Positions 60,901 through 63,900 of a stretch of 64,000 nt of DNA are shown here, one piece after another. The DNA is from Terebella lapidaria (lineage: Eukaryota; Annelida; Polychaeta; Terebellida; Terebellidae): positions 32,982,165-33,046,164 of the forward strand of contig OX424564.1 of the NCBI GenBank assembly GCA_949152475.1, in the 5' to 3' direction. Each line of letters starts with the position of its first letter. Position 1 is the stretch's first letter. The position numbers and the translations under genes are program-made. A model generated the notes under the pieces. The model made no database searches. It saw nothing but the letters and a program-made list of their open reading frames with translations, and was not told the DNA's origin.

Positions 60901-63900
60901 ATTGTTATGTGGGGTGTTTGTCGATTCCAGGATAGGCTGATTAGGGCCAGATTTTTATTTCATAGCTAAAACAATGGGGTACCTGCTGATGCCATGTGCT
61001 TTTGGGGCTATGAAAAGTCTATTATGCCCAAAACGTAAAAAAAAACCCGTCATGTTCATTGTCTGCATTATGCAAAAACAAACATGACAAAATTTGAATG
61101 CAACATTATTATTACGTTTTTGTATTATATGGCACAGTAGACTGTTTCTATGGTTTATCTATACCCGAATTACATGGTGGCGATCCTGGTGGCAAACAGG
61201 AACCTCATTGTGAAACACCTGTCACCATGGTCACTTATTTAAAAAAAACATGTCCTACACTGTAGTTGAACATTCAAGTGACAAAATCCTATAACATTCA
61301 CACAAAACATCAAAGCATCCTTTTATTTCCTTTTCACTTCTGCAATTGTCGCCAGATGATTGCCCACTTACGTGATAAATACACTACATCTTCATATTCT
61401 TTACAAATGTATTAATGAATAAAATTTACTAGTCAGTGATGCAAACATTACCTACTACATCAAGTGAATATCGAATGTATCAGTCTTGAATGTCATGCTA
61501 GTATATAGCAAACTTTTATGCTGAATAAGGTATTATAATTTCAGTTTTATAATGAACCAAACATTGAAAATCCCTGAAATCAATCAGTGTACCGTGCTTG
61601 TCGATTTGACATTGCCTTTCAACACTCTATTTATTTGATAAACTGTTGTTGCCTGCAGGGTGATGCCAAAATGGTGTTGGACGTGATTGCACGTATGGAA
61701 GACACAGAACCTTTCTCGGAAGAACTGCTGGCTAGCATGAAGCGACTGTGGACTGACTCGGGTGTTCAAGAGTGCTTCGGACGCTCCAACGAGTACCAGC
61801 TTAACGATTCCGCAAAATAGTATGTGTTTCAGCTTGATAATTTCGCAAAATGTATCTCAGTATGTGTATGTGTTTCATCGTAACAAGTATGTGTATGTGT
61901 TTCCGTAAATTAGTATTATGTTTCATCTTTTACCCAAGTAGTACCACCTATTTCACATCGGTTGTGTTCTATAAAGTTAAAAATGAATGTATGTAAATTC
62001 ATAGATTAACTTTTAACATCTATATAAATCAGTAAATGAAAAGTTATAGTGCATGAAGTTAAAGTGTATATAAATATGTGTATATTAACTTGTTCACGGA
62101 TGGTTTATCCCAAGTTGGTCTACATGAACTCACCTACAATATTTAACTGGCTTTTATAGGAAAAATTTACCCGCTATGCAGAAGGACCGGCTGCCATGGA
62201 TATCAAATCATCAAAGTACACAATACTAACAAATTTTGACTTGATTTCATCCACTGTGCAGCTTTTTAGACGACCTGGACCGTCTCGGTCAGAAAGACTA
62301 CATGCCCATAGAGCAGGACATTCTTCGCACCCGAGTCAAAACAACAGGCATCGTAGAGGTCCATTTCCACTTTAAGAACTTAAATTTCAAGTGAGTAGCG
62401 TCCGCATTCCGGAGAAGTCGTGGTGGAGGATTTTGTCTCGTTGGTGCTTGGTGCTATGGTTGATGTTGTGTGTTACAGTTTAGCTGCATGTGTGGAGCTC
62501 ATGTGTTATCCTAGGTTTGCAGCTAGTTTGTAGTAATTGACCACTTATAAATATCTGTCACTGAACATTGCTGAATCTCTAGTGTACTCTAGTGTATTTA
62601 ATAGATGTCTGTTGAATTTTCACCATGACCAAAACTTGTAGCTGTTTATAAGTGGTCGATTAGCTAGAATGTTTGGTTTTTGTGTGTGCAAATTTATCAT
62701 GTTTGTGTTTGCACTTGTTTTATACAATGTACATATATGTATAATTTGTGCATGGTTTCCTTATTATCCAGATTTAAATTTTATACTGGGTGATGGACAT
62801 CGCTTTATAGCTAGTCACAGATACAACATTCATAACCTCTCTGTGTGCGTTTTACCCTTTGGTGTGCTTCAGTTTTTCTGCCCCTTGCATCTCACATTGT
62901 AGTGTTTGCTGTGTATGTATGAATATATCACAATTTTGCAGTTACTTAGATTCAATAGAACGGATAGGGGACCCAAATTACAAGCCTTCTCAGCAGGATA
63001 TTTTACGTACACGAGTTAAAACCACTGGAATTGTGGAAATTACGTTCACATTTAAAAGATACTTCTTCAGGTAACAATCGGGGCAATAAATGCATGAAAC
63101 TTTAACTGGACTTCATAGTAGTTTGTGTATAGAGGCATGACATTTCTTTCAGGGAAAATACTTTCAATAAAGTACAACTTGATGTAATGGATATACACAT
63201 GTAATCTATACGAGTGAACAATATGTAATGGATAATATTTTACAATGTACATCAATACATAAATTTATTGAACATTGATAATTTATCATTCTCTATTGAT
63301 GTAAGCTGAAGTTGAATTGTAATTCTGAGATACCATCGAGAGAGCACAAGCAGATCACTGTTATATATGTTACCCATGTTACAGGTTATTCGACGTCGGC
63401 GGCCAGAGATCAGAGCGTAAGAAATGGATTCACTGTTTTGAGGACGTAACCGCCATTATATTCTGTGTGGCAATGTCGGAGTATGACCAAGTATTACATG
63501 AGGATGAAACCACTGTAAGTGCAGTTACCGTCAATCCATATGATGATATTGAACAGTATTTTTGTTGTGCTGTCAGTTGTCGAGATTGTAAGTTCTCAAC
63601 ATGTTTATATTTCATAGTACAACTCAAACTCATAATAATGAATATGTAGTAAAAATGTACTCGACTTGTAACTGATACCCATAAATGTTATTGTGATTGT
63701 AGAACCGTATGCAAGAGAGTCTGAAGCTATTTGACTCGATCTGTAACAACAAGTGGTTCACAGATACCTCCATCATCCTGTTCCTCAACAAAAAGGACCT
63801 TTTCGAGGAAAAAATCAAGAAATCGCCGCTGACGATATGCTTTCCTGAGTACACCGGTACGTGAACCGTCTATAAATGTATTTGAGCGGCGGGTTTGCAT

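What the first reader, a model, noticed from the sequence alone, without database searches (positions are those of the whole stretch)
62262..63070. Tandem, intact alternative exon 5 pair encoding switch I of a G-alpha-o-like protein
Two 129-bp exons lie 551 bp apart between exons 4 and 6. Both have good splice sites, the same phases and no disabling change. Both keep [12 protein letters not shown] with the catalytic Arg but differ in the linker entering switch I and in the beta2-beta3 segment leading to switch II. Vertebrate G-alpha-o is known to alternate its last exons (GNAO1 o1/o2); I know of no described alternation of the switch I exon. Choosing 5a or 5b could change nucleotide exchange, RGS contact or effector contact. 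Including both would also stay in frame, so nonsense-mediated decay would not police it.
Basis: partly seen in the sequence, partly recalled or inferred. Interest (0 to 1): 0.88.

Follow-up and report, generated by a model that had tools for sequence, protein, structure and literature searches.

The report
Two-version receptor-and-switch exon in Gαo
A G-protein gene (Gαo) from an unnamed, probably spiralian, invertebrate carries two intact but different copies of its switch exon side by side; splicing likely picks one of the two, which would change how the protein meets its receptors, a device already known in sister G-protein genes.

Summary
Exons 5a (62262-62390) and 5b (62942-63070) are both 129 bp, open, GT-AG flanked and in one phase, 551 bp apart between exons 4 and 6 of a Gαo gene. 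5a is the ordinary protostome exon. 5b shares 26 of 44 residues, keeps [12 protein letters not shown] while changing 10 of its 12 codons, and changes αF/linker 2 and the β2-β3 loop. At the third-position distance, 0 of 200,000 neutral simulations give this. 5b as sister of 5a is rejected (AU p 0.0016-0.0018; 44 columns). Two unnamed, apparently intronless Gαo proteins carry b-like exon-5 segments; in one (P0143) divergence is concentrated in this exon, as a spliced-in b-type exon would look. I found no report for Gαo (nine searches, capped listings). 5b turns N194-L195-N196 into R-Y-F; Leu195 belongs to the pocket for receptor loop ICL2, so altered receptor coupling is my best guess. No RNA of this species was available; use and exclusivity are inferred.

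The parts
48866..48983 (+). coding exon 1 of Gαo ([10 protein letters not shown]...LLLL)
49434..49476 (+). exon 2 (P-loop GAGESGKST)
53388..53529 (+). exon 3
61659..61819 (+). exon 4, ends in phase 2 (TA|)
62262..62390 (+). exon 5a, canonical protostome-type; residues 155-198 together with exon 4's last two bases and exon 6's first base
   Evidence: 43 of 44 residues as in metagenomic P0124
62534..62556 (+). left arm of a 23-nt inverted repeat (20 of 23 complementary, 83-nt loop) in the 5a-5b intron; possible splicing hairpin
   Evidence: 0 of 200 first-order Markov copies of the intron held such a repeat; function untested
62640..62662 (+). right arm of the same inverted repeat
62942..63070 (+). 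exon 5b, divergent alternative copy
63385..63514 (+). exon 6 (switch [13 protein letters not shown])
63703..63856 (+). exon 7 (NKKD box); exon 8 lies beyond what the window shows

Best explanation
This is a Gαo gene with two intact tandem copies of exon 5, of which splicing likely uses one per mRNA, giving two Gα proteins predicted to differ mainly in how they engage receptors. Shown: gene structure, both exons intact, an identical switch I core (residues 173-187), a pattern of change in 5b that neutral decay does not give, and a stop codon if both copies are skipped. Inferred: (1) 5b is joined to exons 4 and 6 in some cells. (2) Double inclusion is avoided or discarded, since it would insert a second switch I. 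Spacing (551 bp), splice-site class (all GT-AG), frame and a distant branch point do not explain that, so trans-acting factors or intron RNA structure (a 23-nt hairpin lies in the 5a-5b intron) would have to. (3) The 5b changes N194R, L195Y and N196F rewrite the β2-β3 loop, part of the pocket for receptor loop ICL2, so 5b would shift receptor preference or the rate of receptor-driven GDP release, leaving GTP hydrolysis nearly unchanged. (4) 5b is an old exon, split from 5a before the lophotrochozoan a-type radiated, not a recent copy.
For: Structure and coding constraint. Gαo: the first 8 PDB rows are Gαo chains and the best aligns ungapped over 1-292; a tree without exon 5 (window plus 30 hand-picked rows of 226) puts it inside the protostome Gαo branch, SH-aLRT 99. 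5a is the usual exon. Age: 5a+5b as sisters rejected, AU p 0.0018 with and 0.0016 without ascidian rows; 5b inside the lophotrochozoan a-type rejected, p 0.0008. Relatives: P0143, a 354-aa protein on a contig of at most 1558 bp, is 92.6% identical to P0123/P0124 outside exon 5 and 33 of 44 inside. Against P0123 it has 11 mismatches of 44 in exon 5 and 23 of 310 outside (Fisher p 0.001; 0.0002, 0.008 and 0.0004 against P0127, P0130 and P0126), with none at 123-158 or 199-285. Control: of 959 pairs over 90% identical outside exon 5, 7 show an exon-5 deficit over 0.13 and all 7 involve P0143; the largest without it is 0.09. P0143's exon 5 is nearer to P0224's (36 of 44). I188 together with K/R194 occurs in 3 of 230 segments of 227 proteins: P0021 (coral), P0143, P0224. 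Receptor pocket: L194/L195 and F196/F197 of Gαi/o belong to it (PMC7308389, passages; Gαi L194 also in PMC9477835 and PMC10129325, passages). Tyr195 is in none of the 230 segments, 226 have Leu (the set is rich in vertebrates). Steric causes: intron lengths, AG-free zones of 37 and 43 nt.
Against: No transcript of this species was available. The protein bank shows no close 5b match: best single-copy identity 73% among the 120 listed of 149 candidates, and one a-type exon among short proteins. The bank is clustered at 90%, so a full-length 5b isoform (18 of about 354 residues changed) could be hidden, and absence says little. P0143 and P0224 are unnamed; they may be second genes or species with a single exon 5, and P0143 shares only 29 of 44 residues with 5b, fewer than with 5a (32); P0224 shares 32 with 5b and 33 with 5a. 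5b+P0143+P0224 has weak support (76/75) and appears after the ascidian Gi rows are left out; with them, holding 5b inside all protostome exons was not rejected (p 0.205). Trees rest on 44 columns, and 5b is a long branch (1.4 and 1.57). PMC7308389 found the ICL2 contact not critical for primary Gi/o coupling, only for secondary coupling. The whole 5a-5b intron does not fold unusually well (z -1.3).
Confidence: 0.72

Rival explanations
1. Both exons are routinely included together, giving a Gα 43 residues longer with two switch I segments.
For: Double inclusion is in frame. Ciona and Phallusia Gi records of 397 aa hold both copies in a row (P0001, P0002), and an Anopheles Gαq double-inclusion variant is cited in PMC4553527.
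Against: PMC4553527 says the Anopheles form was considered a premature transcript because it could disrupt the GTP hydrolysis pocket, and did not find it in Lygus. The ascidian records may be gene predictions. P0143 and P0224 each hold one copy of the exon.
Confidence: 0.07
2. 5b is a silent relic: an intact exon rarely or never used.
For: No RNA evidence. 5b has a lower GC3 (0.36 against 0.60 for 5a), a slightly weaker donor (7 against 8 of 9 consensus bases; consensus recalled) and a long branch.
Against: Frame, splice sites and a 12-residue block kept at saturated synonymous distance do not fit neutral decay (0 of 200,000 at that distance; 1,093 of 200,000 for frame, splice sites and 26 residues at distance 0.37). 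Exon 3 also has GC3 0.36 and exon 4 a weaker donor (6 of 9).
Confidence: 0.1
3. 5b arose in this lineage by a recent duplication of 5a and then evolved fast.
For: Tandem position. 5b is a long branch. With ascidian rows present, 5b inside all protostome exons is not rejected (p 0.205).
Against: 5a+5b as sisters p 0.0016-0.0018; 5b inside lophotrochozoan a-type p 0.0008. 5b is nearer to coral (32 of 44) and mammal (31) Gαo exons than to 5a (26). Flanking introns align only in short AT-rich stretches.
Confidence: 0.2

Closest known systems
Duplicated exon 4 of GNAQ/GNA11 in fishes and exon 5 of preGNAI in urochordates (Lokits et al. 2018, PMC5896119, sections 31 and 45 read)
   Same: The homologous exon is doubled, and one copy or the other is described as spliced in.
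   Different: Other Gα subfamilies and lineages. The authors infer independent duplications. For Gαo the section I read (25) describes only the vertebrate exon 7-8 pair; they included 2 protostome species.
Insect Gαq alternative exons (Lygus, Anopheles, Drosophila; PMC4553527, section 11 read)
   Same: Variants part after Leu155, about where this exon starts; a 43-residue double-inclusion variant is cited.
   Different: Gαq, not Gαo; that paper found a single Gαo form in Lygus (abstract passage).
Vertebrate GNAO1 o1/o2 (exons 7-8)
   Same: Mutually exclusive exons in the orthologous gene, thought to tune receptor coupling (PMC5896119 section 25).
   Different: A different exon pair at the C-terminal end; the exon here shapes αF, switch I and the β2-β3 loop.
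Cephalochordate preGNAI exon 6 / preGNAQ exon 5 duplications (PMC5896119, section 41)
   Same: Single-exon duplications in Gα with predicted interface changes.
   Different: The next exon downstream (switch II side).

Membership tests
Gαo subfamily | Sequence nearest to Gαo, not Gαi or Gαq | tested here: met
   The first 8 PDB rows are Gαo chains; placed inside protostome Gαo in the tree without exon 5 (Gi rows as outgroup, no Gq row).
Gαo subfamily | Eight-coding-exon layout with conserved borders | tested here: inconclusive
   Exons 1-7 found (118, 43, 142, 161, 129, 130, 154 bp). Exon 8 not in the window.
Gαo subfamily | C-terminal GCGLY | not testable with these tools
   Exon 8 is outside the window; the genome search 'own' did not complete (ten calls).
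Mutually exclusive tandem exons | Neighbouring homologous exons of equal length and phase, both intact | tested here: met
Mutually exclusive tandem exons | Each transcript carries exactly one copy | not testable with these tools
   No RNA data for this organism. P0143 and P0224 show one copy each in unnamed relatives.
Mutually exclusive tandem exons | A sequence-visible cause of exclusivity (short spacing, U2/U12 mix, frameshift on double inclusion, distant branch point) | tested here: not met
   551-bp intron, all GT-AG, double inclusion in frame, AG-free zones 37-43 nt. Not every member needs one.
Known Gα switch I exon pairs (fish GNAQ/GNA11, urochordate preGNAI, insect Gαq) | The duplicated exon is the homologous one, starting near residue 155 | tested here: met
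   Exon 5 covers residues 155-198; papers; ascidian Gi copies align to the same segment.
Known Gα switch I exon pairs (fish GNAQ/GNA11, urochordate preGNAI, insect Gαq) | Shared origin of the duplication | tested here: inconclusive
   The five Gi segments (four ascidian copies, Dimorphilus) split from the Gαo exons incl. 5b with support 84/89, which points to separate events, but 44 columns are few and no Gαq pair was included.

The most novel reading that the evidence does not exclude
Exon 5b belongs to an ancient second class of Gαo exon, kept from before the protostome a-type arose and still spliced in across several spiralian lineages, so that neurons or sensory cells choose by splicing which receptors Gαo hears through a rewritten ICL2 pocket, while Gαq, Gα11 and Gαi reached the same device independently with the same exon.
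Probability: 0.3. Interest if true: 0.68.

Novelty: new member of a known kind. Interest (0 to 1): 0.48.

Why it matters
Gαo is the major neuronal Gα of vertebrates, which diversify it by splicing its last exons. A second, older-looking choice point in an invertebrate Gαo, at the very exon that Gαq, Gα11 and Gαi alternate elsewhere, would mark this exon as a repeated target for tuning G-protein coupling. Because switch I stays constant while the receptor-pocket loop changes, the pair is a natural test of how much the β2-β3 loop alone sets Go receptor preference.

Tried and rejected
Rejected: chance resemblance or pseudo-exon; a second switch I chemistry (residues 173-187 identical); exclusivity by short intron, mixed splice-site class, frameshift or distant branch point. 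Led nowhere: Rfam scan (0 hits); whole-intron fold (z -1.3); single-sequence AlphaFold of P0143 (mean pLDDT 38.5, not used); third protein search for short b-type exons (only an a-type exon); PMC12045641 (passages, nothing on exon alternation); literature on Gαo exon 5 alternation (capped listings with titles and abstract starts, few papers opened; the tenth search was for the ICL2 pocket). dN/dS per copy across relatives could not be done: no collection of eukaryotic genomes is among the tools.

Full report
WHAT IS THERE. The window's + strand from 48866 to 63856 holds coding exons 1-7 of one Gα gene. A search over GT/AG borders within 15-35 bases of the tblastn hits, with the 5a and exon 6 stretches fixed, gave a single open solution for exons 1-6, and exon 7 follows. 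Between exon 4 (61659-61819) and exon 6 (63385-63514) lie 5a (62262-62390) and 5b (62942-63070), both 129 bp, both AG...GT, both phase 2, with a 551-bp intron between. With the shared flanking bases they encode residues 155-198: [44 protein letters not shown] and [44 protein letters not shown].

WHICH GENE. The spliced partial protein aligns without gaps to residues 1-292 of a Gαo chain in the PDB and matches Pfam G-alpha over 14-292. In the protein bank Capitella Gαo is 92% identical over the whole query; two named rows score higher, a Diaphorina record with repeated segments (P0121, 85%) and a hamster record (P0122, 80%). A tree built without exon 5 on the window and 30 hand-picked rows puts it inside the protostome Gαo branch (22 rows, SH-aLRT 99), nearest by path to Capitella.

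IS 5b REAL. Of 26 residues shared by 5a and 5b, 9 use the same codon; in [12 protein letters not shown] 10 of 12 codons differ while no residue does; differences fall 13/11/31 by codon position. Third-position distance is near saturation (JC 2.4). Neutral simulation from 5a with half or all of that distance left 0 of 200,000 copies with frame, splice sites and 26 residues, and none with the block intact. A far lower distance (0.37) gave 1,093 of 200,000 for the three conditions, so the conclusion depends on the third-position estimate. 5b is therefore most likely an old exon under coding constraint.

WHERE 5b COMES FROM. 5a is the common protostome exon: 43 of 44 residues as in P0124, 41 of 44 in Tubulanus (P0135) and Octopus (P0130). 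5b is nearer to coral (P0021, 32 of 44) and mammal (31) Gαo exons than to 5a (26). On exon-5-only trees, 5a+5b as sisters is rejected (AU p 0.0018; 0.0016), and so is 5b inside lophotrochozoan a-type exons (p 0.0008). Against this: with ascidian Gi rows in, 5b held inside all protostome exons is not rejected (p 0.205), there are only 44 columns, and 5b is a long branch.

RELATIVES WITH A b-LIKE EXON. Two metagenome-derived proteins stand out. P0143 (354 aa on a contig of at most 1558 bp, so apparently intronless and presumably cDNA) is 92.6% identical to P0123/P0124 outside exon 5 and 33 of 44 inside. Against P0123 it has 11 mismatches of 44 in exon 5 and 23 of 310 outside; those outside lie at 4-122 and 286-302, with none at 123-158 or 199-285. 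Among 959 pairs over 90% identical outside exon 5, 7 have an exon-5 deficit over 0.13, and all 7 involve P0143. The same count is 0 of 838 for exon 6 and 4 of 994 for exon 7, but 584 of 1664 and 222 of 1409 for exons 3 and 4, which vary more (some exon 4 cases look like register shifts in my ungapped comparison). P0224 (contig of at most 2332 bp) has a similar exon 5 (36 of 44 to P0143's). The pair I188 with K/R194 occurs in 3 of 230 segments: P0143, P0224 and coral P0021. I read P0143 as a b-type exon spliced between exons 4 and 6 in a relative. A second gene, or a species with only that exon, is not excluded; P0143's exon is closer to 5a (32) than to 5b (29), P0224's is 33 and 32, and the grouping 5b+P0143+P0224 has support of only 76/75. 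Two searches for 5b itself showed nothing closer than 73% in a single copy (120 of 149 listed, one hit at 63%), but the bank is clustered at 90% identity, which would merge a 5b isoform with its 5a sister.

HOW IT LIKELY WORKS. Residues 173-187 are identical, so the catalytic Arg179, Thr182 and Gly184 (numbers and roles recalled) are constant. The 18 differences are at 156-172 (αF/linker 2) and 188-198 (β2-β3; element names recalled). PMC7308389 (passages) names L194/L195 and F196/F197 of Gαi/o in the pocket for ICL2 residue 34.51, which it places at the αN/β1 hinge, β2/β3 loop and α5; PMC9477835 and PMC10129325 (passages) name Gαi L194. 5b has R194-Y195-F196 where 226 of 230 segments have Leu195 and 217 have Asn194 (a set rich in vertebrates). 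The most likely effect is a changed receptor preference or receptor-driven GDP release. Caution: the same paper finds that contact important for secondary, not primary, Gi/o coupling.

WHY ONE AT A TIME. Spacing, splice-site class and AG-free zones (37 nt before 5b, 43 before 5a) give no steric cause. The 5a-5b intron holds a 23-nt inverted repeat (20 of 23, 83-nt loop). At that threshold the 64-kb window has 12 such places, 9 of them in or beside the tandem-repeat region at 5.7-7.7 kb, and 0 of 200 Markov copies of the intron had one, but the intron as a whole folds ordinarily (z -1.3, 10 of 100 shuffles as good). It may be a transposon remnant; its role is open.

PRIOR WORK. Lokits et al. 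2018 (PMC5896119: abstract and outline, 'find' passages, and sections 6, 17, 25, 31, 41 and 45 read; [quoted passage not shown] In the Gαo section they describe only the vertebrate exon 7-8 pair; two protostomes were included. PMC4553527 (section 11 and passages read) describes insect Gαq variants that part after Leu155 and cites a 43-residue double-inclusion variant from Anopheles (the cited paper itself not seen). PMC5765363 (passages) mentions exon 4A of Drosophila Gαq. In the bank, Ciona and Phallusia Gi records of 397 aa carry both exon-5 copies in a row (P0001, P0002). Nine literature searches listed nothing that I recognised as Gαo exon 5 alternation; listings were capped, most listed papers were not opened, and the library lacks most subscription papers.

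VERDICT. The kind is known; the case (Gαo, protostome) appears new. Not shown: transcription, exclusivity, function.

Noticed in passing
62534-62556 / 62640-62662: 23-nt inverted repeat (20 of 23, 83-nt loop) inside the 5a-5b intron; one of 3 such places in the window outside the 5.7-7.7 kb tandem-repeat region.
   Followed up: partly
35011-35141: A perfect 23-nt inverted repeat (23 of 23), perhaps a small transposon or hairpin.
   Followed up: no
27684-27938 and 28372-28863, + strand; perhaps 9870-11483: LIM-domain exon (PF00412, E 1.8e-11), followed by an ORF that looks like a further LIM exon but matched no Pfam model; the wording [16 protein letters not shown] recalls the Ajuba/LIMD1 group (recalled). 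The long Ser/Pro-rich ORF at 9870-11483 may be its first exon.
   Followed up: partly
548-1780, - strand: 410-aa ORF with PNMA/gag-like domain (E 1.7e-9) and a sub-threshold zinc knuckle: a gag-type ORF of an LTR element or a domesticated gag.
   Followed up: partly
39353-40729 and 40849-41448, + strand: Reverse transcriptase ORF (PF00078, E 1.4e-29) followed by a second ORF without Pfam match: by look a decayed non-LTR retrotransposon.
   Followed up: no
5751-7753; 23586-24885; 26688-27537: Tandem arrays with 215-, 134- and 147-bp units (9.3, 9.7 and 5.8 copies).
   Followed up: no
P0001, P0002 (protein bank): Ciona and Phallusia Gi records of 397 aa contain both switch I exon copies in tandem; possibly gene-model errors, possibly real double-inclusion transcripts.
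   Followed up: partly
P0131 (protein bank): Anopheles sinensis Gαo record begins with two alternative first exons fused head to tail (two MGC starts), likely a gene-model error.
   Followed up: no
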